This document shows, one piece after another, positions 41,449 through 63,731 of a DNA stretch of 64,000 nucleotides. The number at the start of each line of letters is the position of its first letter. Position 1 is the first letter of the stretch. A model generated the notes under the pieces. It did not search any database, was not told the DNA's origin, and worked only from the letters and a program-made list of their open reading frames with translations. The DNA is from Linum tenue (lineage: Eukaryota > Streptophyta > Magnoliopsida > Malpighiales > Linaceae): NCBI GenBank assembly GCA_946122785.1, contig CAMGYJ010000006.1:47760066-47824065 (forward strand), read 5' to 3'. Made by a program: the position numbers and the translations under genes.

Positions 41449-42563
41449 TGATAGACCGTTAATTACACATGTTTTCACCCCTATTCTTGAGCCGTTTGAG
41501 GTGTTGATTCTCGTGTTTTAGGCCGATTTCACGCTAGGTTGTGCTTGTTTGAGATATTTCAGGTCCTAGTACACGAATGGAGGCCTGGGAGCGAGTTTGG
41601 GGTCGATTGGACGAAGATCGGGCGCGAGGCAAGCCGATGAGGAAGCCACACGGGCACACACAAACCTCACACGGCCGTGCAAGTGACCAATGTGGCCGTG
41701 TGATTTGTGCCGAGAGCAAACACGGGCAGAGCAGCATTCCCACACGGCCGTGTGACCCTGGCCGTGTGGGAAGCCTGAAATCCAATTAATCGATACGCCG
41801 CGTTTTGAGTCACACGGGCAACTAGGTGAGCCACACGGCCGTGTGGCCTGCCCGTGTGAGTCGAAAAATCTTGGGTTTTCACCCAATTCCGAGCCACAAG
41901 TGAGAGAATCGGATTTTCAGAGCAAAAACAGAGTTTTAGAGAGAGAAAGAGCGAAGAACAAACCCTAGGAGCTATTTGGAGTGGATTCCTCACCATTGAA
42001 GCCCAGATTGCGTCCCCAGGAGTGAAGATTGACATCCCAGAGCAGATTTTCCTCATCTTTATGAGTATGACTACTCTGATTTCTGTTTTCCTCTCTCTCT
42101 CTATGGAGTAGAACCCTTCTCTCACTTGGGTATGAAGAACCCTAGTTCCTTGTGTTGGGGATTTGATTGTAATGACTTGGGATGATTATACTGCTTGGTT
42201 TTAATCGAATGATGCATGTTTTATTGAATTGATTGAAGTCTGATCAGCTTTTCTTGATTTCTGCTGCAACCTGAGATAGATAGAATCTGATTAGGTTGTT
42301 AGAGCTTCTTCATTCAATAGTAGAAGATTGGTTATACGAGAGTTAGACAGTTTACTGCTTTGTACTGGAATTCAATTCCAGTAGTGGAGTTCTGTGTTCA
42401 CAGCCTCAGCTTTCTATCCCGGTGAAGACTAGTCGTCTGCCGGGTAGTTAGACTGAGAGGGCTTGGTCAGCTTAAGAGATTCCAAGCTACTGTCAGATCT
42501 TCCGCAGTCTAATCAACAGTGAATCAACCCAGGGTAATTACAATTGAACCTAACTAAGGAGCT
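41449..42563 (+). repeat. Element C 5' LTR, 3' end lost
   Basis: TGATAGACCGTTAATTAC start, matching 56683 onward. It stops at AAGGAGCT (42563), where the 3' LTR continues with AGGGGGACTC, so about 230 bases are missing. The palindrome array is at about 41641-41862. Confidence 0.9.
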
Positions 42564-42721
42564 TGAAAGGACCTGCAAGGTTATTGGGGGGGGGGGGGGA
42601 CCTCTAGGTTATTGGGGAAACGTGAGAATTTGTTACTCTAGCTTTTTCTTTACTGCATTTTTTTCCTCTTCCACCTGTGTGCCTTCACGGGTTGCTTTTG
42701 CTGGTTGTGTGCAGGTAGTGC
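42564..42721 (+). other. Scrambled leader of element C
   Basis: TTGAAAGGACCTGCAAGG here repeats gag sequence found at 42765-42781. A run of about 14 G (42586-42599) stands where the primer site should be, then CCTCTAGGTTATTGGGG as in the leader of D. The tRNA-Asp primer site is therefore absent. Confidence 0.8.
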
Positions 42722-43252
42722 ATGACCCGTAGCCAGTCAGGGGAACTACTACCATTAGACCAGGAGCTTGAAAGGACCTGCAGGAACTTCAAGCGTCTCT
42801 AAAGGCCCGACTGGCTGCGGAGGAGAGCTAGCACAGCTGCAGATCACTGACGAAGAGGAGATGGCTGATCCAGAGAAACAGGATGTGATTAATCCAGAGG
42901 AGCAGACCTTGGGATCCTACTGGACCGCCAGAACCGCGGACATGAGGTCACCCATTCAATACCCTCATGTCCCAGCCAACAATTTTGAGGTGAGCACATC
43001 AGTAATCACCATGCTGCGCGGTTCAGTGGTGTTCCGAGGCAAAGAGGGGGAGTGCCCCCGATCACATCTTAGGCGATTCCACGAGCTCATCGATGGAATC
43101 AAGATCAATGGGGTCCCAGCAGATGCCATCCAGCTGAGGTACTTCCCATTCACCCTGGAGGGGCAGGCCAAGGAGTGGCTAGACACTCGACCTCCGGGCT
43201 CTATCACCACATTGGCCAACCTGGCGGACAAGTTCCTCACCCGCTACCATCC
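42722..43252 (+). pseudogene. Element C gag, 5' part
   Basis: Particle protein fragment. ATG 42722 starts MTRSQSGELLPLDQELERTCRNFKR, then a deletion near 42799 creates a TAA (element D has GGGCTCTAAAGG in a different frame here). In the shifted frame it reads MADPEKQDVINPEEQTLGSYWTARTADMRSPIQYPHVPANNFEV, then GECPRSHLRRFHELIDGIKINGVPADAIQLRYFPFTLEGQAKEWLDTRPPGSITT, the retrotransposon gag core, to FLTRYH at 43249. Element D is inserted here and the frame resumes at 49952 with PSKTADLQKQ. Confidence 0.85.
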
Positions 43253-44599
43253 TGATAGACCGTCATTTACACATGTTTTTACCCCCATTCTTACACCGTT
43301 TGAGGTGTTGATTCTCGTGTTTTAGGCCGATTTCACGCTAGGTTGTGCTTGTTTGTGATATTTCAGGTCCTAGTACGTGAATGAAGGCTTAGGAGCGAGT
43401 CTGGGGTCGTTTGGACGAAGAACGGACGAATGGCGAGGTTTTTGGGGAGCTGCACGGGAAGACCAGGGAGACGCACGGCCGTGCACGTGAGCAATATGGC
43501 CGTGCGCTTTACGCCGAGGCCACGCACGGGCAACCCCTGAAGATCGCACGGCCGTGCATCCTGGCCGTGCGAGAAGCCTGAGGTCGAACTAATTGATACG
43601 CCGCATTTTGGAGTGCACGGCCAAGTGGGTGATCTGCACGGCCGTGCACCCTGGCCGTGCGAGTCGGGAATTCCTGGTTTTAGAGCCTATTCCGAGCGAA
43701 AAGTGGGAGAATCGTGTTTTCAGAGCAAAAACAGAGCCCTAGAGAGAGAAAGTACGAAGAACACACCCTAGAAGCTGTCTTAGAGATGGATTTCATCAAT
43801 CGGGCTTGGAGATCGTCATAGGAGTGAAAATCATCGTCCCGGAGCAGATTATCCTCATCGTTATGAGTATGACTAATCCGATTCTTGTTTTCTCTTCTCT
43901 CTCTATGGAGTAGAACCTTTCTCTCACTTGGGTATGAAGAACCCTAGTTCCTTGTGTTAGGGATTTGATTGTAATGACTTGGGATGATATTACTGTTTGA
44001 TTTTAATCGAATGACGCATGTTTATTGAATTGATTTGAGTCTGATCAGCTTTTCTCAATTTCTGCTGCAACCTGAGATAGATAGAATCTGATTAGGTTGT
44101 TAGAGCCTCTTCATTCGATAGTAGGAGATTGGCTATACGAGAGTTAGCCAGTTTACTGCTTTGTACTGGTGTTCTTGGCGCCAGTAGTGGAGTTCTGTGT
44201 TCATAGCCTCAGCTTTCTATCCCGGTGAAGACTAGTCGTCTGCCGGGTAGTTAGACTGAGAGGGCTTGGTCAGCTTAAGAGATTCCAAGCTACTGTCGGA
44301 TCTTCCGCAGTCTAATCAACAGTAAATCAACCCAGGGAATTGCAATTGAACCTAACTAAGGGGCTAGGGGGACTCAATCCCGAGTGACTCTTGCCTGCTT
44401 TAGAAAACCGAACAATTTACTGCTTTCTTGTTGCTTTTACTTTTCACAACAATCACTCGAACTAGTTTGCTAGATAATAGAGAATCACGGAGTAAGCAGT
44501 AGATCTAGACCCCGGGTTGATAATTAAACTTGCCTGTTACTGCATTCCCGGACTGCGATTACACTTGGTCGCAGTTTGGTGTTGTGTTTTGGCGTGTCA
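43253..44599 (+). repeat. Element D 5' LTR
   Basis: TGATAGACCGTCATTTAC...GGCGTGTCA, 1347 bases, directly followed by the primer site. Word CGCACGGCCGTGCG at about 43451-43668. Confidence 0.93.
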
Positions 44600-44605
44600 A
44601 GTTTT

Positions 44606-44623
44606 TGGCGCCGTTGCCGGGGA
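44606..44623 (+). promoter_or_regulatory. Primer binding site, tRNA-Asp (element D)
   Basis: TGGCGCCGTTGCCGGGGA is exactly complementary to the 3' end of plant tRNA-Asp (TCCCCGGCAACGGCGCCA). It lies six bases after the LTR end and is intact. Confidence 0.93.
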
Positions 44624-44743
44624 CCCCTCTAGGTTATTGGGGAAACGTGATAATTTGTTACTCTAGCTTTTTCTTTATTGCATTTTTCTTTTCCACCTGT
44701 GTGCCTTCACGGGTTGTTTCTGCTGACTGTGTGCAGGTAGTGC

Positions 44744-46719
44744 ATGACCCGTAGCCAGTCGGGAGATCTACTACCGTTAGACCAGGAGCTTGAACGAACT
44801 TGCAGGAACTTCAAGCGGGCTCTAAAGGCACGACTGGCTGCGGAGGAGGAGCTACCACAGCTGCCGTTAGAAGAAGAAGAAGGAGAGATGGCTGATCCAG
44901 AGAACCGTGATGTGATCCCAGAGGAGCAGACCATGGGATCCTACTGGACCGCTAGGGCTGCAGACATGAGGTCACCCATTCAACACCCTCATGTCCCAGC
45001 CAACAACTTTGAGGTGAGCACCTCGGTGATCACCATGCTGCGCGGTTCAATGGTGTTCCGTGGTAAGGAGGGAGAGTGCCCTCGATCACATCTCAGGCGA
45101 TTCCACGAGCTCATCGATGGAATCAAGATCAATGGGGTACCAGCAGATGCCATCCAGCTGCGGTACTTCCCATTCACTCTGGAGGGGCAGGCCAAGGAGT
45201 GGCTAGACACTCGACCTCCGGGCTCCATCACCACGTTCGCCAACCTGGCGGACAAGTTCCTCACCCGCTACCATCCTCCATCCAAGACAGCTGATCTCCA
45301 GAAGCAGATTACACATTTTTCTCAGGATGAGGATGAGACCATTAGGGATGCTTGGGAGAGATACACCAGCCTCTTTCTCAGGTGTCCCAATCATGGTTTC
45401 AATGATGCATTCAAGGTGGGCACCTTCTATCACGCCCTCTTCCCGGAGGACAAGCAGCTGATCGATTCGGTTTGTGGCGGGAACATGCTGACCAAAACCC
45501 CGCCACAGCTGAATCAACTCTTTGAGGAGATGGCGGAGAACGGTTATGACTGGGGCACTGTCAGGTAGGGCTGGCTATTTGGACCGGGACCGGATGAAAA
45601 ACCGGAAACCGGACCGTATAACCCGGACCGAGACCGGACCGGGACCGAATAGTAAACAATCCAATCCAATCTTTGGGCTTAGATTTGAGGTAAAAAACCG
45701 GATAAAGACCGGATAAGAGAGCTCAACACCCAAAACTTAAGGGTAATTTGCATAAACGGTCACAAACCTTTGCACTTAGTACAAAACTTAACCAACTCCT
45801 CACCCTTTTAGGCCTTAGGCCACTCAAATTCCCACAATCTCAATATAAAATCAAGACCGAATTGGGACCGGACCGGGTCAAGACCGGACTGTATCCAATC
45901 CAATCTTCGGTCCTTATATTTTCAAAAAAACCGGACTGGACCGGATCAATTTGGGCCAATTTAACCGGACCGGACCGTATAGCCACCCCTACTGTCAGGA
46001 GATCGCGACGAGCACCTGGATGGGGTGTGCATGCTGTGGGCACCCAGTCATCTGATTTGGTGCAGGTGGTATCGAAGCTGGTTTCAGCTATCGATCGTTC
46101 TGGTATGATTCCAGGGACCGGACAGCAGCAGGCGATGCTCTGCCAATGGTGCGAAAGCACCCATCATACGGTGGAGGACTGCCAGGCGATGAAGGAATCA
46201 ACCACACCCCAGGAGCAGGTGAACTTCATCAACAATGTCAGGTGCAATGACCCCTACAGCAACACGTACAATGAGGGGTGGCGCCAGCATCCTAACTTCT
46301 CCTGGGCTGGGCCAAATCCCAAACCACCAGCTCCACAGGGACCACCAGGCTTCCAGCGGCCACCATATCAGCCCAGACAGGGGCAATTCCAGCAGCAACA
46401 ACAGTCTCTCTATCAGCCCATGCAGGGGCATGCTGCTCAATCACAGCCGCGGCCTTTCCAGCAGCCAGGTGCAGCCCCTGCTGCCCCAGTGCAGAATGAT
46501 CAGATGGCTGAACTGCGGGACTTGGTAGGCTCTCTCGCCAGTGCTAGTGCTCAGAAATTCAGCACCTTTGAGCAGTTCATGGAGAAGGCCTCGGGTAAAC
46601 TCCTGGCTCTTGAAGCTGGCCAGAGGAACACACAGGCCGTTTTGCAGGATATCCAGACCCAGCTGGGGAGCGTGGCCCAGGCAGTGGCTCAAAGGGATCC
46701 TGGTACTCTACCCGGGTAG
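44744..46719 (+). pseudogene. Element D gag, interrupted by a hAT MITE
   Basis: Particle-forming Gag. ATG 44744 opens MTRSQSGDLLPLDQELERTCRNFKRALKARLAAEEELPQ; the Athila-type gag core follows (NNFEVSTSVITML..HLRRFHELIDGIKINGV..YFPFTLEGQAKEWLDTRPP), then RDAWERYTSLFLRCPNHGFNDAFKVGTFYHALFPEDK. The MITE 45566-45991 splits the frame after YDWGTVR; removing it and one copy of CTGTCAGG rejoins it to RSRRAPGWGVHAVGTQ. A CCHC knuckle (CQWCESTHHTVEDC), a Gln/Pro-rich stretch and a short coiled region follow. A TAG at 46717-46719 ends it where element C has CAG, so at least two lesions are present. Confidence 0.9.
45566..45991. mobile_element. hAT-type MITE
   Basis: 426 bases flanked by CTGTCAGG (45558-45565 and 45992-45999). 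Ends TAGGGCTGGCTATTTGG and the complement of GTATAGCCACCCCTA. GGACCGG/CCGGTCC words crowd both ends. The youngest layer of the four-deep nest. Confidence 0.93.
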
Positions 46720-46764
46720 ACCATCCCTCATCCGCAGACCCCGGATGAGCGCTGCAATGCCATC

Positions 46765-47949
46765 ATGACCAGGAGTGGCAAGCTGACTGTTGATCCCCCT
46801 GCTCGGGAACCGGAGAGAGAAAGCCCTGTTGCAGCATCTCCAGTGGTTGAACAAGAAGTAGAGAAGGAGGTTGAGGTGCCTGCACCTAAACCGCAACCAG
46901 TAGTGAAGGAGTATGTCCCTAAACTCCCTTTCCCTACTCGGTTGCACAAAGACAGGCTGGAGGCAGAGTTCGAGAACTTCATGGCCATGCTTAAGAAGCT
47001 GAATGTCCAAGTGCCCTTCCTGGAGGCACTATCGCAAATGCCGAAGTATGCGAAGTTTCTGAAAGAGCTTCTCTCAAAGAAGCAGAAGCTGAGTGAGCTG
47101 GCCACTGTGGAGCTCAGCGAGGAGTGCTCGGTTATTCTGCAGAACAAGCTTCCGCAGAAGAAAAAGGACCCAGGTAGTTTCACTATCCCGTGCTCTATTG
47201 ATAAATTGCATGTAGAGAAGTCCTTGGCGGATTTAGGTGCTAGTATCAATGTTATTCCATATAAATTGTTCATGAAACTAGGCATAGGTGAACCCCGTGC
47301 TACTAGGATGACCCTTCAATTAGCTGACAGATCTGTAGTGCATCCTAGGGGTATAGTGGAAGATCTTCTGGTTAAGGTTGGCAAATTCACATATCCTGTG
47401 GATTTTGTTATCCTGGACATCAGTGAGGACACAGAAGTGCCTCTTATACTGGGAAGGCCTTTCCTGGCCACCGCCAAGGCTCTCATAGATGTGCATGATG
47501 GGACCTTAGTTTTGAGGGACGGCGAGGAGCGAATAACGTTTTCAGTTGCTAACACTATACCTGCTTCGTTACCTCTGCATGCTGTATCTCACCAGGAGCA
47601 CGAGTCTGTCGTGTATCCTTCTGTGCTGCCTATTTTGCAGGACCCGCCTCCCACACCTTCGCCGCCACTCCGGACCACTCCGTCATCCAAAGAACAGATC
47701 AAGGAGGAGTGGCGGCCGAAACTGCAGGCAGCTAAGCCCGCTCGAACGAAAGCCGGAGACCACTATGAGCTGGTCCCGCCCCCACCTTGGCCATGCGAGT
47801 ATTCACTCGCTTGCATCCTACCGGATGGCCAAGTCGAGCTGGCAAATGCAGGTGGCCACATTCGTCGCGTGCATGGCCACCATTTGAAGCTGTACCTCAA
47901 GAGCGATGTGGATCCGCTCTTGAAGGCACCTGATCCTACACTTCCCTGA
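46765..47949 (+). CDS. Element D protease fused to integrase-tail remnant
   Basis: Longest intact retrotransposon frame in the window (394 codons from ATG 46765, open from 46720). LPFPTRLHKDRLEAEFENFMAMLKKL and PFLEALSQMPKYAKFLKELL lead into SCSVILQNKLPQKKKDPGSFTIPCSID-type sequence and the aspartic protease: LADLGASINVIPYKLF with the catalytic Asp codon at 47230-47232, then [41 protein letters not shown]. After a Pro-rich linker it ends CEYSLACILPDGQVELANAGGHIRRVHGHHLKLYLKSD, which resembles the C-terminal tail of gypsy integrases (the FKVNGxRLKxYL block). Reverse transcriptase, RNase H and integrase core are absent. Would process Gag in a particle; the Gag frame is separated by a TAG just upstream. 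Confidence 0.85.
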   Translation: MTRSGKLTVDPPAREPERESPVAASPVVEQEVEKEVEVPAPKPQPVVKEYVPKLPFPTRLHKDRLEAEFENFMAMLKKLNVQVPFLEALSQMPKYAKFLKELLSKKQKLSELATVELSEECSVILQNKLPQKKKDPGSFTIPCSIDKLHVEKSLADLGASINVIPYKLFMKLGIGEPRATRMTLQLADRSVVHPRGIVEDLLVKVGKFTYPVDFVILDISEDTEVPLILGRPFLATAKALIDVHDGTLVLRDGEERITFSVANTIPASLPLHAVSHQEHESVVYPSVLPILQDPPPTPSPPLRTTPSSKEQIKEEWRPKLQAAKPARTKAGDHYELVPPPPWPCEYSLACILPDGQVELANAGGHIRRVHGHHLKLYLKSDVDPLLKAPDPTLP

Positions 47950-47993
47950 GCATCCATACTGGCGTCCAGCTAAAAGACGGTAAAGAAGCGCTT

Positions 47994-48011
47994 GTGGGGA
48001 GGCAACCCCAC
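47994..48011 (+). ncRNA. Conserved post-pol hairpin, element D copy
   Basis: GTGGGG-AGGCAA-CCCCAC, 45 bases after the TGA at 47947. Preceded by GCGTCCAGCTAAAAGACGGT and GCGCTT, also conserved in C and A. Confidence 0.6.
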
Positions 48012-48129
48012 CGAGGTTTGCATTTTCTTACTCTTTTTCCTTTGATTTTGTGTGTTTTTGAGTCTTGAGACGTTGATCCAGAGTCCAGTGTCGTTTTTGA
48101 GTGAAAACAGGTTGATTTCGGGACTCCAG

Positions 48130-48345
48130 CAAGTCGCACGGCCAGGACCACACCTTGCACGGCCGTGCGGGTATCCCCCCTTGGCCGTGCGAGCTCTCGG
48201 CCAAAAGCGCATGGCCAAAAGCGCATATTGCACGGCCGTGCGCTCATCCTGGCCTGGCCGTGCGTATGGCACGGGCATCACATTACCTCGCACGGCCGTG
48301 CGGGTACCCCCCCCCCCCCCTTGGCCGTGCGAGCTCTCGGTAAGG
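48130..48345 (+). repeat. Internal palindrome array, element D
   Basis: GCACGGCCGTGC occurs three times with half-words GGCCGTGCGAG and CGCACGGCC between them. Spacers differ. A C-run of about 14 lies at 48307-48320. The same word fills the LTRs of D. Confidence 0.85.
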
Positions 48346-48562
48346 ATGGCACGGCTAGGTTGGCCAGTGAACAGAAGGGAGACTCTTCCTTTACTCGATT
48401 TGCTGCACTCGAATGTCCTTTGTGGTGGTTGTCCAGGTTGTTATTGAGGTTGTGCATGTATTGATGTTTGAAAACCAGTGCGATTCACGTGTTCTGTGCC
48501 TTTATGACTTGTCCCCAATGTTGGTTGATTGAAATATGTAAGCTTACCTGGTGTCTGACTTG

Positions 48563-48603: not shown

Positions 48604-49951
48604 TGTTAGACCGTCATTTACACATGTTTTTACCCCCATTCTTACACCGTTTGAGGTGTTGATTCTCATGTTTTAGGCCGATTTCACGCTAGGTTGTGCT
48701 TGTTTGTGATATTTCAGGTCCTAGTACGTGAATGAAGGCTTAGGAGCGAGTCTGGGGTCGTTTGGACGAAGAACGGACGAATGACGAGGTTTTTGGGGAG
48801 CTGCACGGGCAGACCAGGGAGACGCACGGCCGTGCACGTGAGCAATATGGCCGTGCGCTTTACGCCGAGGCTACGCACGGGCAACCCCTGAAGATCGCAC
48901 GGCCGTGCACCCTGGCCGTGCGAGAAGCCTGAGGTCGAACTAATTGATACGCCGCGTTTTGGAGTGCACGGCCAAGTGGGTGATCTGCACGGCCGTGCAC
49001 CCTGGCCGTGCGAGTCGGGAATTCCTGGTTTTAGAGCCTATTCCGAGCGAAAAGTGGGAGAATCGTGTTTTCAGAGCAAAAACAGAGCCCTAGAGAGAGA
49101 AAGTACGAAGAACACACCCTAGAAGCTGTCTTAGAGCTGGATTTCATCAATCGAGCTTGAAGATCGTCATAGGAGTGAAAATCATCGTCCCGGAGCAGAT
49201 TATCCTCATCGTTATGAGTATGACTAATCCGATTCTTGTTTTCTCTTCTCTCTCTATGGAGTAGAACCCTTCTCTCACTTGGGTATGAAGAACCCTAGTT
49301 CCTTGTGTTAGGGATTTGATTGTAATGACTTGGGATGATATTACTGTTTGATTTTAATCGAATGACGCATGTTTATTGAATTGATTTGAGTCTGATAAGC
49401 TTTTCTCAATTTCTGCTGCAACCTGAGATAGATAGAATCTGATTAGGTTGTTAGAGCCTCTTCATTCGATAGTAGGAGATTGGCTATACGAGAGTTAGCC
49501 AGTTTACTGCTTTGTACTGGTGTTCTTGGCGCCAGTAGTGGAGTTCTGTGTTCATAGCCTCAGCTTTCTATCCCGGTGAAGACTAGTCGTCTGCCGGGTA
49601 GTTAGACTGAGAGGGCTTGGTCAGCTTAAGAGATTCCAAGCTACTGTCGGATCTTCCGCAGTCTAATCAACAGTGAATTAACCCAGGGTAATTACAATTG
49701 AACCTAACTAAGGAGCTAGGGGGACTCATTCCCGAGTGACTCTTTCCTGCTTGAGAAAACCGAACCATTTCCTGCTTTCTTACTGTTTTCAGTTTAAACA
49801 ACAATCACTCGACTTAGTTTGCTAGATAATAGATAATCACGGAGTAAGCCATAGATCTAGACCCCGGGTTGATAATAGAACTTGCCTGTTACTGCATTCC
49901 CGGACTGCGATTACACTTGGTCGCAGTTTGGTGTTGTGTTTTGGCGTGTCA
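48604..49951 (+). repeat. Element D 3' LTR
   Basis: TGTTAGACCGTCATTTAC...GGCGTGTCA, 1348 bases. Close to the 5' LTR up to about 49670. The last 280 bases match the 3' LTR of element C better than they match the 5' LTR of D. Confidence 0.9.
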
Positions 49952-52179: not shown

Positions 52180-52225
52180 GCATCCACCTACTGGCGTCCA
52201 GCTAAAAGACGGTAAAGAAGAGCTT

Positions 52226-52243
52226 GTGGGGAGGCAACCCCAC
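52226..52243 (+). ncRNA. Conserved post-pol hairpin, element C copy
   Basis: GTGGGG-AGGCAA-CCCCAC, 46 bases after the TGA, identical to D and A. Confidence 0.6.
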
Positions 52244-52367: not shown

Positions 52368-52725
52368 TCACACGGCTAGGCCTGATGCTCACACGGCCGT
52401 GTGGATTTGATCCCTTAGCCGTGTGAGCTCTCGGCAAATTCCACACGGCCAAATGTGAAATTGGCACGGCCGTGTGGCTTGGCCTGGCCTGGCCGTGTGG
52501 CCGACACGGGCAACTCATATGCTCGGACGGCCGTGTGGATTTGATCCCTTGGCCGTGTGAGCTCTCAGCAAATTCCACACGGCCAAATGTGCAACTAGCA
52601 CGGCCTGTGGAATCCTCGGCCTGGCCGTGTCGGCCAACACGGGCAAAACTGCCCCTCACACGGCCGTGTGAGCCTGCCCGTGTGGCCGAGCCACGGCCTA
52701 TAAAAATGACCCACGCGGCTGTGTT
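52368..52725 (+). repeat. Internal palindrome array, element C
   Basis: CACACGGCCGTGTG and half-words (GGCCGTGTGAGC, CCACACGGCC, CACGGGC) repeated about a dozen times with unequal spacers. The same word fills the LTRs of C. Confidence 0.88.
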
Positions 52726-53526: not shown

Positions 53527-54824
53527 ATGACGAAGCCCAACCTCAGGCACCCGTTTATTCAAGATTTGAAAAGGGGGCCCCACCAAGATCGTTTTAAGAG
53601 CGTCCTGGCCTGCAAATTTGGACAGCATCATTGCTGGTCCAAGCGAGAGTTGGAGAAGCTGAACTGCTACGAGCACTTCTCCGCCATAGTCATCAACCGC
53701 CCCTGGCGCCGCCTCCTCCAAATTCGAGAGAAGGTCTACCACGAGCTCGTACTCGAGTTCTACACGACCTTCAAGCATGCAGACACGGACGATTGGAAGG
53801 ACGGAGCAGCCGTCCAGTTCAGGCTCGGCGGTGCACCCCGATCCATGAGCTACCAGGAGCTGGCGACCACCCTCGGCCTCGTCCTGGTCGATGACAGGGA
53901 CTACATCACCGAGCTTCACGAGCCAGAGGGGGTGAACTTCTAGATGCTGTACACCCGCCTCGCTCGGCCAGGCCAGCGTCCCTTCTCGGCGGGGAAGACG
54001 AAGGCCAGCACATTGCAGCTCGACAACCGCATCCTCCACCACATGCTGGCCAAGTCTTACACTCCGGCCTCGGACAGTGCCAGCGCCATCACCAAGCGAG
54101 CCATGTACCTCATTCAGTCTATGCGCCAGAGGGATCATCCTCTCCATTTGGGCTCGGTGGTGGCGAGGACCTTCGACAAGAGTGCTTCCAAGCTAAAGAA
54201 ACTCCACTGCACCCCCCTCATCACCCGCCTGGCGTCCTACTTCGAGATCTCCCTGCAGGGGTGCACAGAGCAGGGCGACACCAGTGCCTTTGGCGAGGTT
54301 ACAATCAGTAAGATGCACCTGCTTCGGGAAGAGCGAGGTGTTAAGTGGATCGAGGGGTTTCCACAACCCCAGATCCCAGAGGAGGTCCAGCCGGAGGTTT
54401 CCGAGGGTGCGGCTGATGAGGAGGTGGAGCCCGAGGAGGTGGATGCTGCTGCTGCCCCCCTCCCCACCACCTTCGAGTACGGGGGTGGCAGCTCCGCTTT
54501 CCCCGGGCAGGACTACTTCGCCTACCAGTTCGAGCAGCTGCGTCTCCAGAACCAGCAGATCCTTGACCAGCAGCTCCAGTTCCAGCAGAAGTACGCGGCT
54601 CACCAGGCCGAGTACCAGTACAGGATGGCTGCTTATGATGAGTGCCTGGACATGATGGTGACCCAGCAGGGGGTAACTTTGGCTCATATCGAGCGAGAGA
54701 AAGCTTGATCTAGGCGCATGCAGGAGGTCCAGCAGCACCTGCTCCAGCTGATGGTGATGATGGAGCTGATGGTGATGACGCCTTCATGGACGACATCGAT
54801 ATGGATAACCTTATCGACGAGTAG
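53527..54824 (+). pseudogene. ATHILA ORF-1-like gene of element C
   Basis: The extra gene found downstream of pol in Athila-type elements; its role is not known and no membrane or signal segment is visible here. ATG 53527 gives MTKPNLRHPFIQDLKRGPHQDRFKSVLACKFGQHHCW, RRLLQIREKVYHELVLEFYTTFKH and VQFRLGGAPRSMSYQELATTLGLVLVDD. A TAG at 53941-53943 is followed in frame by MLYTRLARPGQRPFSAGKTKASTLQLDNRILHHMLAKS, MYLIQSMRQRD and CTPLITRLASYFEISLQG, then an acidic Glu/Val-rich linker and a Gln-rich, coiled-coil-like end (FEQLRLQNQQILDQQLQFQQK). A TGA at 54706-54708 and a frameshift precede the true end, DDAFMDDIDMDNLIDE, stop at 54822-54824. Most complete copy of this gene in the window. Confidence 0.8.
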
Positions 54825-56641
54825 GCTGTACTCGTTGCCCATCTCAGTGTGTTTTTTGTTTTAGACTTTTGTGTGTTTGCTCCATGTGTGAGGAGCTTGA
54901 ACTTAGTGTCGTTTGTTTTTTGTTTTTGTTTCTCTTTGGTGGATTGTTTATTTTGTAGCCATCTGGGCTAACACTTATCCCTAACGCACAGTGTGCTAGT
55001 GTGTTCTTGGTGTTCGATTCTTGCAGAACTGTCCATCTTCCGGTTTGTTTCTTGCTGACTGGTCCACTTCCAATCCCCCAGCAGTATTTCAATCCGGTAA
55101 CATCGTTCCCCTTATCTCTCCCTCTACTCCATTGAGGGCAATGTCGTGCTTAAGTGTGGGGGGGTGCTTTGTATCGGTTGGAATATATATTTGAGTGCTT
55201 GGAGCCTAGTCCGCTGTCTGAATCTTACGATTTGAGGGCTCCAGGTACTGCTGTTTGATCATATTGGCACTGTGTTGTGATTGATGAATTGAATGGTTTT
55301 CGGATTGATGCATGACAACTTGATTGTGACTAGGACAACCTATGATGAGGACTGAGACGTGCAGTAGAATTTTGTAGGGGTTCAGTTTTTCAACTGTTTG
55401 CTTACCAACTGTGACTTGGATTGATCACTTGTTCTTGACAGTCGTTTATGCATCTAGTTCAGGGTATCAGAATGTGAGATAGAGCATATAGGTAGCCATG
55501 TGAGATTTGAGCCTGCTCGTTTCTTTCTTGTGCGATAGAACTCTCTTCCATGATGTGTAGCATTCACGATGTCACTAGCTAAGATGATGGGCGCATAGGA
55601 TTAGCCCACTACCAAATTGACTGTCCTGATGTCTCATATCCCCTAGTCAGCCCCTTTGAGCCGTGTGTTATCCTTTCTTTTGGTCTATAATGAAAAATCA
55701 CCCTTTTGCATCTTTTAGAAGGTTCCACAGAGTGGTTTTTACATATTCTCTGCTGTTTCTGCTAAATTTAATGTGAGTGTTGGAGGTAGTGCTTAAAAGT
55801 TGGGCATGTGTTTGAAATATGTGCAGAAGTGGTGGCTCTCTTAAGAAATGAAAAGAAAAAGGAAAGAAAAACAAAGAAAAATTGAAAGCAAAAGAGAGCC
55901 ACTACCAAAAATCTGAATAATGCCCATTAAGTAGTGTTTCTTAGCAGTCTGGCTTGGAAATGCTAACATTTATACCTCCTTCGCTTTTGTGCTCTTGAGA
56001 TATTGAGTAATGCAGAATGGCAGAAAGGAAATACTGGTTTGTTTGATTGTGATTGTGTGGGTTTGGAAATGTGGAACCTTGTGCTATGAATACTTCCACC
56101 ACCTAAAAGGCCTTTTCCCCATGTCCAAGACCCTAGCCAGTCACTTGAACCTGTGTCTAAGACCTCCGGATTAGTTAGTGGTGACACTCCATATGTGAAC
56201 TCTAGCATTTAGAGGCTGCCATCATGGTGAAGATATGTTAGGGATTGAGAGAAATAGCATGCGCATTTTTCGCATCAAATTGTCCTGACCCCACTGGTCG
56301 AGAGTGAGTGATTCATTTTCATATTCTATATACTCTTGTACCCCAGTGAGGACCTAGATTGCTCGGTCTCTATTCTGATGTCTTGAGTTGGATGCATGAG
56401 GTGACTGTTTTGAGTAAGTGGTTGAGTCAAGTCTAGGTTGGTTGGTGAACAGAAGGGAGACTCTTCCTTTACTCGATTTTGCTGCACTCGAATGTCCTTT
56501 GTGGTGGTTGTCCAGGTTGCTATTGAAGTTGTTCAGGTGTTGATGTTTGAAAACCAGTACGATTCACGTGTTCTGTGCCTTTATGACTTGTCCCCAATGT
56601 TGGTTGAGTGAAAAATGTAAGCTTACCTTGTGTCTGACTTG
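54825..56641 (+). other. Long non-coding 3' region of element C
   Basis: Contains CTCCATTGAGGGCAATGTCG (about 55126-55145) and TTAAGTGTGGGGGGG (about 55150-55164), then 1.4 kb with no recognised frame. The last 220 bases (from about 56430) match the region of D after its palindrome array. An 81-codon minus-strand frame at 55963-56208 is unsupported. Confidence 0.5.
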
Positions 56642-56682
56642 GTTTGCTTGGGGACAAGCAAACGGTTAAGTGTGGGGGAGTT
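56642..56682 (+). promoter_or_regulatory. GGGA-loop hairpin and polypurine tract, element C
   Basis: GTTTGCTTG-GGGA-CAAGCAAAC (56642-56663), then GGTTAAGTGTGGGGGAGTT next to the 3' LTR. Confidence 0.85.
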
Positions 56683-58031
56683 TGATAGACCGTTAATTAC
56701 ACATGTTTTCACCCCTATTCTTGAGCCGTTTGAGGTGTTGATTCTCGTGTTTTAGGCCGATTTCACGCTAGGTTGTGCTTGTTTGTGATATTTCAGGTCC
56801 TAGTACGTGAATGGAGGCCTGGGAGCGAGTTTGGGGTCGATTGGACGAAGATCGGGCGCGAGGCAAGTCGATGAGGAAGCCACACGGGCACACACAAACC
56901 TCACACGACCGTGCAAGTGACCAATGTGGCCGTGTGATTTGTGCCGAGAGCAAACACGGGCAGAGCAGCATTCCCACACGGCCGTGTGACCCTGGCCGTG
57001 TGGGAAGCCTGAAATCCAATTAATAGATACGCCGCATTTTGAGTCACACGGGCAACTGGGTGAGCCACACGGCCGTGTGGCCTGCCCGTGTGAGTGGGGA
57101 AATCTTGGTTTTTCACCCAATTCCGAGCCACAAGTGAGAGAATCGGATTTTCAGAGCAAAAACAGAGTTTTAGAGAAAGAAAGAGCGAAGAACAAACTCT
57201 AGGAGCTATTTGGAGTGGATTTCTCACCATTGAAGCCCAGATTGCGTCCCCAGGAGTGAAGATTGACATCCCAGAGCAGATTTTCCTCATCTTTATGAGT
57301 ATGACTACTCTGATTTCTGTTTTCCTCTCTCTTTCTATGGAGTAGAACCATTCTCTCACTTGGGTATGAAGAACCCTAGTTCCTTGTGTTAGGGATTTGA
57401 TTGTAATGACTTGGGATGATTATACTGCTTGGTTTTAATCGAATGATGCATGTTTTATTGAATTGATTGAAGTCTGATAAGCTTTTCTTGATTTCTGCTG
57501 CAAACTGAGATAGATAGAATCTGATTAGGTTGTTAGAGCTTCTTCATTTGATAGTAGGAGATTGGTTATACGAGAGTTAGCCAGTTTACTGCTTTGTACT
57601 GGAATTCAATTCCAGTAGTGGAGTCCTGTGTTCACAGCCTCAGCTTTCTATCCCGGTGAAGACTAGTCGTCTGCCGGGTAGTTAGACTGAGAGGGCTTGG
57701 TCAGCTTAAGAGATTCCAAGCTACTGTCGGATCTTCCGCAGTCTAATCAACAGTGAATCAACCCAGGGTAATTACAATTGAACCTAACTAAGGAGCTAGG
57801 GGGACTCATTCCCGAGTGACTCTTTCCTGCTTGAGAAAACCGAACCATTTCCTGCTTTCTTACTGTTTTTAGTTTAAACAACAATCACTCGACTTAGTTG
57901 GCTAGATAATAGATAATCACGGAGTAAGCCATAGATCTAGACCCCGGGTTGATAATAGAACTTGCTTGTTACTGCATTCCCGGACTGCGATTACACTTGG
58001 TCGCAGTTTGGTGTTGTGTTTTGGCGTGTCA
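56683..58031 (+). repeat. Element C 3' LTR
   Basis: TGATAGACCGTTAATTAC...GGCGTGTCA, 1349 bases, intact. Palindrome array at about 56881-57096. Over 1.1 kb it is nearly the same as the 5' LTR. Confidence 0.92.
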
Positions 58032-58036
58032 ACAGC

Positions 58037-58795
58037 TCATTGGGAGGAAAAAGAATCCCCCCCCCAACAGACACTTAAATTTCCAGTACGGATCCATGCT
58101 AATATAAACAATTAAGCCTAAGCACACCGCGGCAGGGTTCTAGGTGGTCACGAATTATCTCACACAAAAATTCAAACCTGAACCATGCCACGGTGGCTAT
58201 CAACCACCACTAAATCAAAACATTTATCATCATTCAACAATTAGCACTTGGTGGGCAAGTTTCTCAAATACAAGCAATTCACATTAAAACACGCCCACCA
58301 AGGCTCAAATAAGCTCAAGCAACATCATTCAATCACCCTAATTCACCTAATTCCTCGCCCTAATGCTAAGTTCAACAATTAATTCACTAAAATTCTCCTC
58401 ATTTCACTACCTAATCCGATTCTCCCAATAGAAATAAGGTAGAGCCGAAAACCAACTCGGAGACTCAAGTAGGATGCAGAAGGAAGTGAGGTGAGGGCAA
58501 GGACGGTGAAAATTTTTCAAAAAATAGACCGAAGAAAGTTGCCTGAACTCTCGTCGGAGGCTCGCTGAACTCTCGTTGGAGGCTCGCCAGCGGCGACTTT
58601 GTCGGAAAGAATGTGCTCCAAATCTCCCCAAAATCTCGGTGAATGCCGCCTTTGAAGAGGGGAGAATGGGTCTGTGTTTGGTTTTGGGTTTTGCTCGCCG
58701 GAAATGGGTGAAATGGCCAAAAATTGTTGGAATTTCGCGATTTCCGGCGAGATTTGAAAATTTTCGGCGAGTTTTGGGTCGTGAAGTGAAGATTC
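58037..58795 (-). other. ORF-1 leader of element F
   Basis: Minus-strand sequence aligning with the ORF-1 leader of C (CGCCGGAAAT, TTTTTGGCCATTTC, GGGGAGATTTGG, CATCCTACTTGAGTCTCC). Its ORF-1 lies beyond the element C insertion, at 40904-41419. A C-run of about 9 is at 58058-58067. The open frames here are shadows. Confidence 0.65.
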
Positions 58796-59023
58796 GACGT
58801 TCACGACCCTTTTATAGGCAGACTCTTGAGTTCACGGATGCGTTTTCCTGTTGACGGTCTTAGAGAACGTGAACACGGCAATCCATCCGTGAACTCGGGC
58901 AACCCGGTGGGTTTGACACACGTGGAAGCACCCTGGTTCACGGACGCGTTTGCCTGTCCACGGTCTTGAAGCACCCACGGTCTTATAAGACCGTGAACTT
59001 AGCAATCCGTCCTTGAACTCAAG
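58796..59023 (-). repeat. Internal palindrome array, element F
   Basis: GTTCACGG, CCGTGAAC, CACGGTCTT and related half-words repeated about ten times. The LTR of F (63312-63538) uses the same word. Confidence 0.8.
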
Positions 59024-59189
59024 TGAAAAGAGGCCACTTATGGAAAAAAAATTTGACTTGACCTATTCCACCGTGCCTTCTATCGATTACCACACAACCA
59101 AAAAAATTGGCACGGGGATACCACTCGACCGCTTGAACTCTTCACTCGACACACAAAAACGAAAAATAAGGAAAAGAAAACAAACCTAC

Positions 59190-59207
59190 ATTGGGTTGCC
59201 TCCCAAC
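59190..59207 (-). ncRNA. Conserved post-pol hairpin, element F copy
   Basis: Sense GTTGGG-AGGCAA-CCCAAT: same loop and preceding AGCGCTT as in A, C and D, but stem pair three is U-A instead of G-C, and the closing pair is G-U. Confidence 0.6.
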
Positions 59208-59226
59208 AAGCGCTAAGTTAACGTAG

Positions 59227-59920
59227 CTAGCTTGACGTTGCGGATCTATCACACCTTTGAACGTGATGCCGCCGAGAGTGGATCCACCACGTTTTCGAGG
59301 CGAAATCACTCTCCATGGGGTGGCCTTCTTGACCAATTACTTTTGCTTTGCCCTTTTCCTTCCACTGGGCCTTAGCACGACTTATCCTTTCCCTCCAAGC
59401 TACTTTCCTTCCTTCTTTGGGAAACATGCTCTCCTTGCTTTCCTGCATCACATCATCACAAGAACCAACAATAATAGTGGGGTTCGCCTTGCAAGGCTTC
59501 CCTCCACTTGCATTCATATCACCCGCATCAACTTCCTTCACTTCCTCACTCCTAGGCTTATGATCAATTCCAAGAGTAATTCTCTCCTCACCATATCTCA
59601 GTATCAAAGTTCCATTATTTACATCAATTAATGCCTTGGCGGTGGCTAGTAAAGGGTGCCATAGTATGAGTGGCATCTCAGAATCCTCACTTATATCCAT
59701 GATAAAAAAAATATGTCGGATAACAGAACTTTCCCACTCGTACTAGCACGTCCTCCACTATGCCCGTAGGACTAATCACAGAGAGATCGTCCAATGTGAC
59801 ACTAAGCCTCGTAGTCTTTAGTTCACCTATGTCTAGCCTCTTAAAAAGTTTATATGGCATCACATTTATGCTCGTCCCTAGTCCGCCAAGGAATTTTCTA
59901 TGTGATAAGAACATATGCAA
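59227..59920 (-). pseudogene. Element F protease
   Basis: Aspartic protease relic. The gag frame ends ...HIENSLAD-stop at about 59878; in the next frame it continues LGTSINVMPYKLFKRLDIGE, so a one-base loss breaks the frame exactly at the catalytic D-L-G. Further on, VRVGKFCYPTYFFYHGYK and MDISEDSEMPLILWHPLLATAKALIDV are in separate frames, with GRP of the flap region changed to WHP. After the protease the frame reads SKESMFPKEGRKVAWRERISRAKAQWKEKGKAKVIG. Unlike A, C and D there is no recognisable integrase tail. Confidence 0.8.
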
Positions 59921-61958
59921 AGAGGTATAGTGAAACTACCTGGATCGGGTTGCTTCTTGGGCAACCTGTTGAGGATGAAGGCTGAGCACTCATCTCCTAG
60001 GGTGACATTGGTGAGGTCTTTGAACTTTGGCTTCTTAGAGAGACACCCCTTAAGGTATCTCAAATACCTTGGCATGTGGGCCATCCCTTCGAGGAAGGGA
60101 ATGTTGAGGTGGAGCATTTGGAGCATCTCCATGAAACCTCCACATTCCGCTTCCAATCTTTCCTTATGACCTCTCGTGGGAAAAGGTAGGGGTGGTGTGT
60201 ACTCGGTCATAGGTGGTGGCGTTGGCAATGCCTTCCTTGCCACTCCTCTCTTTTCCCCCGAGATTTCCTCTTCTTCACCCTCGGGTAGAGGGTCTTCCTT
60301 CTCATTCACTTCTTTGGAAACGACCTCCGGGGTCACCTTCCAGCTCCTCAATAAATTTGCATTGCACCCGGCTTGATCCTTGGGGTTGGCAATGGTTTGA
60401 GAGGGTAGGGTTCCCTTTGGTCTCTCAGTGAGGATCCTGGCAAGATTGCTAATTTGGACTTCCAAGTTTTGGAGACTCGCTTGGTGGCTACGGAGTCCCG
60501 CCTCAATCGAGGTAAACTTGGATGTTGCCACATCCATGAATTTATCAATCTTCTCGAACTTATGAGAGATTGTACTCATAAAGGCGTTCACAAGGTCTTC
60601 AAGTTCAGAGAACTTGTCGGCTTGTTGTTGTTGTTGAAAACCTTGACCGCCTTGTTCTTGGTATGGTTGTTGGAAGATCGAGTTTTGGAATTGAGGCCTT
60701 TGTTCGATGAATGTTGGCCGAGGTTGATAGTTTCCCGGTGGACCTTGGAAACCGGGAGGTCTTGGATTGGTAGGGGAAAACTAAGCGAAGTTTTGATGAT
60801 TGCGCCAACCGGGGTTGTAGGTGTTGCTATAAGGGTTGTTCCCTCTAGCATTGAAAATGAAACTCACTTGCTCCTCGCGGGTACTCGATTCCTTTATCGC
60901 CTGGCAATCTGCAATTTCGTGATTGGTGCTCGAACACCAATCACAAGACATCACCTCTCTCTCTCTTGCTTCTCGTCCTCAAGAATCACCTCGGTAAACT
61001 TATCAAGCTTCGCTTCAAGTGGAGCACTTGCTCCCACACTTCACACTCCTCGATCGGTGCTTCTCTTCCCACTTCTTGTCAAGCCCCAATCATATCCCTT
61101 AAGAGCCATATCTTCGAGCAACTCGGTCACTTGAGGAGGGGTCATGTTCATCCACCTCCCTTGGCAAAGAGAGTCCATGAGGATCTTGTCATCTTTAATG
61201 AGTCCTCCATAGAAAGTTTCTATCCGAAATTGCTCCTCGAATCCATGGTGAGGGCAGTGGAGGAAGTAGTCGGAGAATCTTTCCCATGCATCCCTAAATG
61301 TCTCATCCTCCTCTTGCTCAAAGTGAGTGATCTTGTTCCTCCACTCGGTCGTCTTGGAAGGAGGACAATATCGGGTTATGAACTTGTTGACGAGATTGTC
61401 CCAAGAGGTGATATATAGAGCGAGACGGTTGTTGAGCCATCGGAGTGCCTTCCCCGCCAAAGAATAGGTGAAGAGCTTCAATCGCAATGCCTCCTCGGGG
61501 ATGCCATTTATCTTCAAGCTTCTCGCTAGCTCAAGATACCTTTGGACGTGCTCTCGTGGTGATTCATGGGCAAGCCCGTGGAAGTAGGCATTTTGTTGAA
61601 TCATCGTCACGAGAGACGACTTGATCTCAAAGTTGTTGGCGGCCATGCGTGAATGTAAGATGGGAGATTGGATATCCGCCGTCCGTGGAGCCATGTAATA
61701 GCCCATAGTCCTTGGCCCTTTCTCGGCTTCCGCTTCTCCATTCGGGTTTGGAGGTGGATTAGCCCCTCTGTGTTGATTTGACGCCATCTCAACTACAACT
61801 CCTTCTTCAATTACTTCAATACCAGGATCAAATTGTTGTCCCCTTTCTTCACTTATCCTTCTTGCCTCCACTTGCTCCCTCTCTTGAGCTAGAAGTCGTA
61901 GATTCCGGTTAATGTCGTCGTCCAATGGTGTTAAAGGCGTCGGATTGCTCCAGGTCAT
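59878..61958 (-). pseudogene. Element F gag
   Basis: Gag of the F lineage, diverged from C and D. ATG 61958 gives MTWSNPTPLTPLDDDINRNLRLLAQE, then MGYYMAPRTADIQSPILHSRMAANNFEIKSSLVTMI, the gag core HVQRYLELARSLKINGIPEEALRLKLFTYSLAGKALRWLNN and RDAWERFSDYFLHCPHHGFEEQFRIETFYGGL, to YDWGLTRSGKRSTDRGV at 61041. A frame change follows; then NPYSNTYNPGWRNHQNFA, a stop at about 60783, a Gln/Pro-rich stretch, FEKIDKFMDVATSKFTSIEAGLRSHQASLQNLEVQISNLA (coiled-coil-like), and ECSAFILNRLPKKQPDPGSFTIPLCIC at the protease boundary. Frameshifts and stops make it inactive. Confidence 0.88.
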
Positions 61959-62085
61959 GCACCTCCCTACACACACTTAAAGAACACAACACGTCTAGCA
62001 CAAACAAACACTTCACAACTGAACAAAAACGGATATTAAAAGCTAGATTAACACCAAACAAACTTTTCACGATAACGGACCGAAG

Positions 62086-62103
62086 TCCCTGGCAACGGCG
62101 CCA
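62086..62103 (-). promoter_or_regulatory. Primer binding site, tRNA-Asp (element F)
   Basis: Sense TGGCGCCGTTGCCAGGGA, one mismatch to the tRNA-Asp 3' end, six bases after the 5' LTR. Confidence 0.9.
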
Positions 62104-62109
62104 AAAACT

Positions 62110-63731
62110 TGACTCGCGATGACTATCACAATAAAATCCCACCTAAGGTCCAAGTATAAACCTTAGATGGGTGCAATATAGGGGCAAGTATGTTTAAATA
62201 TTGACACGGGCCGGTCCATGTACCGCTACTTTGAGTGTTTGAAACATTATCTAGCGGATTGGTTTTGGTGAAAACAAAGGTGTAAGACTAAATTGTTTTG
62301 TAAAGGTAAAATGGATTTGACTCTAGTTGAGAAAGCTTCACCCGGGTGTTGCTCCCCCTAGCTAACAATTATTACTAGAAGAATCAAACGACCGTGTGTG
62401 GTTAGGGGGTCATAAACTGCAGGGAAGTTTAACAAGCCGCCGAAGCTACCCTCTTAGCCTCTAGGTTGAGGAATGGGATACGATCCAAGCCACTAATATG
62501 ACCCTCTCAACCTATCAACTAAGGAATGGTTAGACTTCACCCTCGAATTGGAGTCCAGACGACCACCCACAACCAAATCCTAAGTGCTAATGCGAATTAG
62601 GAGGTTTTCCATTTAACTAACCTAGAATAGGAGGCATAAAATGCCCAAGGAAACCCATCTCTGATAGAGCCTCTTAAGTTAAGGAGGGGTTCTCTCTAAA
62701 CTAGCTTAGGAGACATTGAATGCCCAAGGAAACCCATCTCGAATGAGCCTCTTAGGTTAAGGAGGGTTCTCCCTAAACTAGTTTAGGAGGCATTGAATGC
62801 CCAAGGAAACCGAGCCTCTTGGGTAAAGGAGTTTTCCTCTCTAAACTAGCCTAGGAGGCATGAAATGCCCAAGAACACCCAATGAGCCTCCCTAAGAAGG
62901 TCTCCTCTCTAAACTAGGCTAGAATGGTAATTAGATTGATAGGGTTTCACACAACACAATCATTTCTTAATAATACCTCCACATTCACATTAAAACACAA
63001 CCACACACATATAATTCAATTCATACAAGCATTCACATATTTGTAGCTGGGGTTTACAAACATGCAAGTGAAAGAAGGGACTACTCCATGCTAAGAGAAT
63101 GGAAAACACCGGAGAGGGAAAGGGAAATCAACAAGAAGATGCAATCCTTGCTCCTTGTGCTGAAGAAATCGTCCTCTTGGGGAAGAAATTCCCAAAACCT
63201 TGCTTGGAGAAGAAACCCTAGCTTTTCCTCTTCTTTGGTTCGTCACTTTCTCACTCTAAAATCTGAAAAAGGAGAAGTTTCTCACTCTAGGTCTCTCCCT
63301 TCTTCCTTGGTTCGTGAACATTGTAACGCGTCAGTGAACTCAGTGTTGCGACCAAAACGCACTGCTTCATTTGCTCGGGTTCACGGTCAATGGCCTCTGT
63401 TCACGGTCTTAGTGACCGTGAACTGCCTGGGCGTCAGTAACTTGAAAACCCCCTTAGTTTTCTTCTCGATTCATGGGTTCTGGATCCAGTTCACGGCCTT
63501 TTGAGAACGTGAACTCCAACGTAAGGTCGTGAACATCGGCTATCTCCACCTTTTTGCCCGGTCTTTGGTCCTTTTCTTCCAACTTTCGACTCCGGGTTTG
63601 GTTTTACCTGTTAGGATCTAAAACACACTAAAACACAAGCAACCTCGCGTAAAACCAATCTTTTTGGAGTTCAATTGCAACAAATGTCAAAAAGAATCGG
63701 GGATAAAAAGTGTAAAATAAGTCCCGAATCA
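62110..63731 (-). repeat. Element F 5' LTR
   Basis: 1622 bases, displayed TGACTCGCGATG...CCCGAATCA. It contains the minisatellite at 62628-62933 and a palindrome array at 63312-63538 (GTTCACGGTC, GACCGTGAAC). A 138-codon plus-strand frame at 63088-63504 overlaps it but has no domain and is not called. Confidence 0.9.
62628..62933. repeat. Minisatellite in the F LTR, about 75-85 base unit
   Basis: About four units of AGGAGGCAT.GAATGCCCAAGGAAACC followed by GAGCCTCTTA and CTCTCTAAACTAGC. The truncated 3' LTR (about 40800-40903) has only about one and a half to two units. Confidence 0.85.

What the first reader, a model, noticed from the sequence alone, without database searches (positions are those of the whole stretch)
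41449..63731. Each Athila-like element carries its own palindromic word around a CGGCCG-like core
Seven related LTR lineages hold a dispersed array of short palindromes at the equivalent LTR position, with a different arm in each: CACACGG/CCGTGTG (C), CGCACGG/CCGTGCG (D), GTTCACGG/CCGTGAAC (F), AAGCACGG/TCGTGCTT (36.9 kb solo LTR), AAGTTACGG/CCGTAAC (10 kb solo LTR), CCCCGG/CCGGGTATTT (A), GATCGCGG/CCGCGATC (H). C and D align well in the spacers, yet the A to G arm change is applied at nearly every copy of the word in an element. Independent mutation would not do that. I know of no named feature that explains it. One inferred role is a self-complementary RNA dimerisation or packaging tag, as GC-rich palindromes serve in retroviral leaders, letting each lineage recognise its own RNA; concerted copying by strand switching is the alternative.
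Basis: partly seen in the sequence, partly recalled or inferred. Interest (0 to 1): 0.88.

Follow-up and report, generated by a model that had tools for sequence, protein, structure and literature searches.

The report
Retrotransposon promoters with lineage-specific DNA words
Related jumping genes in this plant genome carry regularly spaced clusters of a short DNA word in two likely promoter regions; the word differs between lineages but matches within an element, which suggests that a matching DNA-binding protein reads it.

Summary
Elements C and D, aligned in the 5' LTR, differ in 45 of 185 spacer bases and 0 of 60 word-core bases, yet the arm base differs at 10 of 11 words. On a contiguous 264 kb, the internal word equals the LTR word in 7 of 7 elements with both arrays. 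A TATA box lies at the edge of 8 of 12 internal arrays. The unit is a directional half-site of about 9 bp (YRCACGGNC), often spaced 20-23 bp apart, two helical turns. Word change looks graded, one half-site at a time.

Best reading: phased binding-site arrays for a sequence-specific DNA-binding factor. RNA dimerisation is not supported, though RNA hairpins are not excluded. It has a precedent: Sireviruses (Ty1/copia) carry family-specific CGG-CCG palindromes in the LTR and upstream of env (PMC2829016). Here the carrier is a Ty3/gypsy lineage in a Linum-like plant. An element-encoded, VANC-like reader is plausible but unproven.

The parts
41449..42563 (+). Element C, 5' LTR (97.7% identical to its 3' LTR)
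   Evidence: self-alignment
41640..41866 (+). C 5' LTR word array: 12 CACGG half-sites, arm A in 11
43253..44600 (+). Element D, 5' LTR; D is nested inside C
43445..43668 (+). D 5' LTR word array: 12 half-sites, arm G in all 12
44744..45568 (+). D gag ORF (PF03732)
46765..47949 (+). D aspartic protease ORF (PF13650); no pol seen in D
48130..48362 (+). D internal word array: 12 GCACGG half-sites
48604..49951 (+). D 3' LTR with word array 48796-49020
52229..52240 (+). Conserved GGGAGGCAACCC motif about 140 bp before the C internal array
   Evidence: the longer motif has 5319 copies in the genome
52360..52700 (+). C internal word array: 16 ACACGG half-sites
52698..52706 (+). TATA box 16 bp after the last listed half-site of the C internal array
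53527..54798 (+). C ORF2-like stretch, frame broken by stops; weak PF20167
56683..58032 (+). C 3' LTR with word array 56874-57100
58795..59030 (-). F internal word array (GTTCACGG)
58810..58817 (-). TATA box at the downstream edge of the F internal array
62110..63731 (-). F 5' LTR with GTTCACGG array 63310-63560
40880..41419 (-). ORF left of the C insertion, ORF2-like (35% to P0023), probably F's (inferred)
36917..38430 (-). Solo LTR, decayed AAGCACGG words (AAGCAC 10 copies)
10905..11260 (-). 10 kb solo LTR array, GTTACGG words, TATA at its downstream edge
22490..24097 (-). Element A LTR copies with AATACCCGG/ATCCCCGG words
34840..35200 (-). H array (GATCGCGG, weak) before a TATA box

Best explanation
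The words are binding sites for a sequence-specific DNA-binding factor, arranged in phased cis-regulatory arrays at two places in the element: the LTR and an internal, usually TATA-bearing site ahead of ORF2.

Shown by sequence: a directional half-site of about 9 bp (YRCACGGNC in the C/D group); a recurring module of > 21 bp >< 21 or 13 bp <; a core conserved below the spacer rate in C against D; an arm that is nearly uniform in C- and D-type elements and differs between them; matching words in LTR and internal arrays; a graded series of arm replacement.

Inferred: that a protein reads the word; that an arm switch follows a change in that protein's specificity; that the effect is promoter activation or protection from silencing; that the internal array is a promoter.

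For: C versus D: core 0 of 60, arm 10 of 11, spacer 45 of 185 in the 5' LTR; arm 8 of 9 in the internal array.

Among 27 of the 38 LTR starts found (those with ACACGG or GCACGG as top word): different-word pairs at 0.3-0.4 spacer divergence have arm 296 of 352 different, core 50 of 2010, spacer 1872 of 5461. Same-word pairs at 0.4-0.5 have arm 24 of 229, core 170 of 1771, spacer 1910 of 4329. Classes were set by the majority arm.

In 11 C/D-group arrays the commonest-base share is 0.94 at the arm base and 0.97 at the +6 C, against 0.36-0.52 outside the unit, with 0.71 and 0.59 at two downstream offsets.

Internal word equals LTR word in 7 of 7 elements with both arrays on the C6 stretch (label permutation 0.0024, relatedness ignored; arrays). 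Five more on C2 agree, but those places were picked by CACACGG.

Same-orientation spacing of 20-23 bp: 116 of the 270 pairs up to 60 bp apart in 28 arrays.

TATA within 20 bp of the downstream edge in 8 of 12 internal arrays, against 0 of 35 LTR arrays beyond that edge (one, e5, has it inside).

CpG observed/expected 0.81-1.23 in 14 array stretches, 0.67 in the window.
Against: LTR arrays of C, D and F show no nearby TATA. Arrays of different lineages are probably homologous, so the spacing is partly descent and the counts are not independent. The arrays fold strongly as RNA. In distant bins the core is not so well kept (up to 197 of 1219), the within-class arm difference reaches 164 of 437, and all seven AACACGG-type LTRs mix A and G arms. 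ORF2 similarity does not follow the arm base cleanly: e7 (G) against L027 (A) is 81%, C (A) against L027 (A) 73%. D and L030 keep an internal array without a detected ORF2. Five of 5 GCGCTTGTT-type sites that I chose have no array, nor do 5 of 12 motif sites on C6.
Confidence: 0.6

Rival explanations
1. RNA-level role: the inverted words form hairpins in the transcript, acting as RNA dimerisation or packaging tags or as hairpin sources of small RNAs.
For: C and D arrays fold better than all 200 dinucleotide shuffles (z -6.0 and -5.2). Self cofold excess is larger than cross: C-C -13.0, D-D -9.5, C-D -3.1; F-F -8.2, C-F -3.9, D-F -2.1 kcal/mol. Maize Sirevirus palindromes are small-RNA hot spots (PMC10760457 passages citing Bousios 2016).
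Against: In H and the 10 kb LTR the array precedes a TATA box. About half of the half-sites in C and D LTRs are unpaired, and unpaired ones keep C at +6 in 152 of 159. Halves of one palindrome differ in 7 of 13 C-type LTRs. Stem pairing needs only local partners, not one word over LTR and internal arrays.
Confidence: 0.17
2. Concerted copying: quasi-palindrome correction, gene conversion or strand switching spreads one word through an array without any reader.
For: Words are nearly uniform within C- and D-type arrays. Short inverted copies are good substrates for template switching (general knowledge).
Against: Agreement mostly ends at the half-site. A contiguous palindrome stays mismatched in 7 of 13 C-type LTRs. 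LTR and internal arrays kilobases apart switch alike. The core is conserved below the spacer rate in C against D.
Confidence: 0.12
3. Binding sites of host transcription factors only, with each lineage tracking a different host factor; no element-encoded reader.
For: Cis-regulatory regions of many TEs are arrays of repeats, sometimes palindromic (PMC10760457 passage). The Sirevirus authors mainly recovered stress-factor sites (PMC2829016 section 9).
Against: A one-base arm switch in nearly all sites of both arrays is unusual for drift among host factors (judgement). The internal array usually precedes an element gene that is less conserved than gag.
Confidence: 0.3
4. CpG deamination turned CGCACGG into CACACGG everywhere at once.
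For: CG to CA is the deamination product, and the decayed solo LTR shows CGA in place of CGG.
Against: The core with its CpG is unchanged in 60 of 60 compared bases of the C and D 5' LTRs. At several sites D has TG and C has CA, which needs two changes.
Confidence: 0.03

Closest known systems
Sirevirus repeated motif (RM) boxes, Ty1/copia (Bousios 2010, PMC2829016; abstract, sections 9, 10, 11, 19 and passages seen)
   Same: Family-specific palindromes, 12 of 13 with a CGG-CCG core, many copies in the LTR plus a second cluster upstream of the downstream (env) gene, TATA after the cluster, CpG-rich.
   Different: Different superfamily (here Ty3/gypsy order). TATA follows the internal array here and seldom the LTR array. 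The paper calls RM Sirevirus-specific within its Ty1/copia set. The parts I saw do not describe a half-site unit, 21-bp phasing or a graded word switch.
VANC anti-silencing proteins and their motifs in VANDAL DNA transposons (Hosaka 2017, PMC5735166; passages seen)
   Same: Short (8-9 base) family-specific motifs repeated in non-coding DNA that diverge between related elements; a variable element gene is a parallel.
   Different: VANDALs are DNA transposons; VANC carries DUF1985 and DUF287. hmmscan of 20 ORF2 relatives gave no DUF1985 match. Binding and methylation loss are shown there, not here.
[quoted passage not shown]
   Same: Palindrome clusters in the LTR cis-region with strong predicted RNA structure.
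   Different: PMC10760457 reports that maize Ty3 elements generally lack an obvious structure peak. No small-RNA data were available here.
Sunflower Athila clade with a methylation drop in the LTRs (PMC12844716; passages seen)
   Same: A Ty3/gypsy clade with its own LTR methylation pattern; the authors ask whether an element-encoded protein shapes it.
   Different: No words or arrays are described in the passages seen; no methylation data here.

Membership tests
Ty3/gypsy LTR retrotransposon | Direct LTRs, PBS after the 5' LTR | tested here: met
   LTR pairs; GGCGCCGTTGCC just after LTRs
Ty3/gypsy LTR retrotransposon | gag, protease, RT, RNase H, then integrase | tested here: met
   Relative e4 (gag, weak protease, RVT_1, RNaseH, H2C2, rve) and e5 (gag, protease, RVT_1, RNaseH; no integrase searched); no pol ORF seen in C and D themselves
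Athila lineage | RT phylogeny placing it with Athila | not tested
   No Athila reference RT was compared; PBS type and PF20167 are leads recalled from memory
Sirevirus RM system | Ty1/copia Sirevirus element | tested here: not met
   RT precedes integrase in relative e4
Sirevirus RM system | High-copy family-specific CGG-CCG palindromes in the LTR | tested here: met
Sirevirus RM system | Second cluster upstream of the downstream gene | tested here: met
   12 internal arrays, 9 with an ORF2 match downstream, F probable, D and L030 without; absent at 5 of 12 motif sites on C6 and 5 of 5 chosen T-type sites
VANC anti-silencing system | DUF1985/VANC protein | tested here: not met
   hmmscan of 20 ORF2 relatives: PF20167 in 20 of 20 (best E 4e-8, below its cut-off), no DUF1985; remote homology not excluded
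VANC anti-silencing system | Protein binds the family motif and removes DNA methylation | not testable with these tools
   needs EMSA/ChIP and bisulfite data
Retroviral dimerisation signal | Palindrome in the 5' RNA leader | tested here: inconclusive
   Array lies upstream of TATA in H and the 10 kb LTR; transcript starts of C/D unknown

The most novel reading that the evidence does not exclude
Each lineage encodes its own reader. The ORF2 protein (PF20167-like region, long helix-like C half, acidic tail) is a fast-evolving DNA-binding activator or anti-silencing factor that recognises the lineage's half-site at both promoters. Word and reader co-evolve as a self-recognition code. This would be a VANC-like system evolved independently in Ty3/gypsy elements, parallel to Sirevirus RM boxes.
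Probability: 0.25. Interest if true: 0.85.

Novelty: new variant of a known kind. Interest (0 to 1): 0.62.

Why it matters
Two distant superfamilies of plant LTR retrotransposons would share one regulatory architecture: lineage-specific CGG-CCG words in the LTR and ahead of the downstream gene. That makes the unsolved function of the downstream env-like or ORF2 genes directly testable. The C/D pair is a natural experiment, with one arm base changed in nearly all sites of both arrays while the core is kept. The graded series suggests how such a word is replaced.

Tried and rejected
Structure prediction of ORF2 (P0023, 20-row alignment) gave mean pLDDT 40, so no fold search was run. The ORF2 profile against solved structures gave 6 weak matches (best E 0.0037, in the helical C half). 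The Pfam scan of 20 ORF2 relatives at E up to 10 listed no DUF1985 or plant mobile domain. A viral-contig scan for the conserved motif found 0. The paper search for the 14-base word found 0 papers, another with CGG-CCG and gypsy terms 0. RNA shuffle z-scores are invalid (faulty shuffle); replace them for C and D; F and e5 were not redone. In the C/D group ORF2 identity does not sort cleanly by arm base, which weakens the co-evolution reading. CpG decay was rejected. A count of mixed against matched arms in the genome (pattern HRCACGGCCGTGYD) did not complete.
Full report
WHERE IT IS. The window lies in a 692 Mb genome. All 22 protein matches to the C ORF2 piece are from Linum trigynum, so it is probably a Linum relative (inference). 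D is nested in C, and C is inserted in F. C LTRs are 41449-42563 and 56683-58032, D LTRs 43253-44600 and 48604-49951, and the F 5' LTR is 62110-63731 on the minus strand. C and D have gag and protease, and no pol ORF was seen. Relatives e4 and e5 on the adjacent stretch have gag, protease, RT and RNase H, and e4 also integrase after RT, the Ty3/gypsy order. Placement in Athila proper was not tested.

THE WORDS. The blind scan of window plus 210 kb finds arrays of CACACGG, GCACGG (outer base T or C), AACACGG, TTCACGG, AATACCCGG and ATTACGG types, besides AT-rich and other repeats (9 of 18 window hits). It finds 0 in a Markov control of the same length. Half-site summaries show the arm base at 84-100% in C- and D-type arrays (the CGG is 100% by construction of that count). 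Forward and reverse copies are balanced, 6/6 in six of seven D-type LTR arrays and 5/6 in the seventh.

C AGAINST D. 5' LTR: arm 10 of 11 changed, core 0 of 60, spacer 45 of 185. 3' LTR: 9 of 10, 1 of 60, 32 of 179. Internal array: 8 of 9, 6 of 70, 39 of 157; the internal core figure includes poorly aligned ends. In one search, 27 of the 38 LTR starts were compared (those with ACACGG or GCACGG as top word; pairs with fewer than 6 half-sites or 80 spacer columns were dropped). The arm differs in 296 of 352 compared sites between word classes at 0.3-0.4 spacer divergence, and in 24 of 229 within a class at 0.4-0.5. At larger distances, where the A class lumps CACACGG with AACACGG arrays and alignment is poor, the within-class arm difference rises to 164 of 437 and the core difference to 197 of 1219. 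The classes were set by majority arm, so the contrast is partly built in; the uniformity inside arrays is not. All seven AACACGG-type LTRs mix A and G arms.

TWO ARRAYS, ONE WORD. It follows a conserved GGGAGGCAACCC motif by about 140 bp. On the C6 stretch 7 of 12 such motif sites carry an array. Elements C, D, F, e4, e5, e7 and e8 have both arrays, and in 7 of 7 the word agrees. Five more on C2 agree too (L005, L027 to L030), but those places were picked by CACACGG, and in L005 the pairing of arrays is inferred. A TATA box lies within 20 bp of the downstream edge in 8 of 12 internal arrays: C, F, e5, e7, e8, L005, L029, L030; not D, e4, L027, L028. None of the 35 LTR arrays has one beyond that edge within 150 bp. 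One, e5, has it inside; 64881 was counted as an LTR tentatively, and three unassigned arrays were left out. The 10 kb LTR and H, too weak for that list, do have one. About 0.7-0.9 kb further on lies ORF2, matched in 9 of the 12, probable in F, absent in D and L030.

GRAMMAR. Half-sites form the module > 21 > 5 < 21 (or 13) <, repeated about three times in a C- or D-type LTR. It is seen in C-, D- and AACACGG-type arrays and, with slightly different numbers, in the AATACCCG type; F arrays are less regular. Of 270 same-orientation pairs up to 60 bp apart in 28 arrays, 116 are 20-23 bp apart. Spacer sequence diverges while this spacing persists. Of 159 half-sites not in a tight palindrome, 152 have C at the second base after CACGG, so the unit is about YRCACGGNC. 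Outside it, base agreement mostly falls to 0.36-0.52 (0.71 and 0.59 at two downstream offsets, perhaps from the palindrome partner). Related arrays are not independent samples.

HOW A WORD CHANGES. In an unrooted tree of 20 LTRs without the word columns (the seven AACACGG-type LTRs left out) the GCACGG class is one clade (support 1.0). Among the 13 A-class LTRs, L026, L027 and L030, close to that clade, keep three G half-sites. L029 keeps two. C's two LTRs, e8's two and L031_5810 keep one, at site 226. L028 keeps one at another site. The three most distant keep none. The direction is not known, but the series is graded, and single halves of a palindrome change alone (219/226 mismatched in 7 of 13). 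That speaks against whole-array replacement, hairpin correction and compensatory RNA pairing.

ORF2. 20 relatives from Linum trigynum share a weak PF20167 region (20 of 20, best E 4e-8, below the Pfam cut-off; the protein database itself lists PF20167.4 for 11 of the 22). Those that reach the C-terminus have a Gln-rich helix-like C half and an acidic tail. In the 7 C/D-group pairs where both were compared, gag is 94-99% and ORF2 65-86% identical (C's gag piece is 96 aa, and one ORF2 piece is 60 aa). Protease over the same group is 70-93%. ORF2 thus changes faster than gag but does not sort cleanly by arm base. The fold could not be predicted. Whether ORF2 reads the word is open.

RNA. The C and D arrays fold far better than shuffles (z -6.0 and -5.2), and self pairing is predicted to exceed cross pairing for C, D and F. 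This is expected of inverted arrays and leaves an RNA or small-RNA role possible.

KNOWN PRECEDENT. Bousios 2010 (PMC2829016) lists 13 Sirevirus elements with family-specific palindromes, 12 with a CGG-CCG core, clustered in the LTR before a TATA box and, in the nine with env, also upstream of env. The present system is laid out like it in another superfamily. The listings of searches showed no paper describing it in Ty3/gypsy elements. They cover an open-licence library only, and I opened just four papers (PMC2829016, PMC12844716, PMC5735166, PMC10760457; all but the first as passages). VANC proteins (PMC5735166) give a mechanism model, and a sunflower Athila clade with an LTR methylation drop (PMC12844716) makes it worth testing.

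VERDICT.

Noticed in passing
L032-L036 (C2 places after the GCGCTTGTT-type motif): Another lineage shares the GGGAGGCAACC motif but shows no word array in 5 of 5 stretches (chosen by me for the T variant); a PPT-like GTGTGGG run follows.
   Followed up: partly
genome-wide: GCGCTTGTKGGGAGGCAACC occurs 5319 times with 0 reversed controls; what this conserved 20-mer does is unknown.
   Followed up: no
window 42586-42599 and 48307-48320: A run of G in the rearranged C LTR end and a run of C in the D internal array; possible assembly or slippage effects.
   Followed up: no
L018 6739-7071 and L019 4086-4542: Arrays of another word (ATCACCGC/GCGGTGAT), with no LTR start of the C/D kind found nearby.
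   Followed up: no
window 7921-9240 +: RING-finger ORF with a zinc ribbon, apparently a host gene beside the nested elements.
   Followed up: no
ORF2 C-terminus, P0001/P0006/P0007/P0018/P0023/P0024: Short acidic-hydrophobic tail (like DDxAFMNDIDLDDLG) in six proteins that reach that end (P0025 diverges after DAFMDDI), across clades about 40% identical; looks like an activation tail (recalled resemblance, untested).
   Followed up: partly
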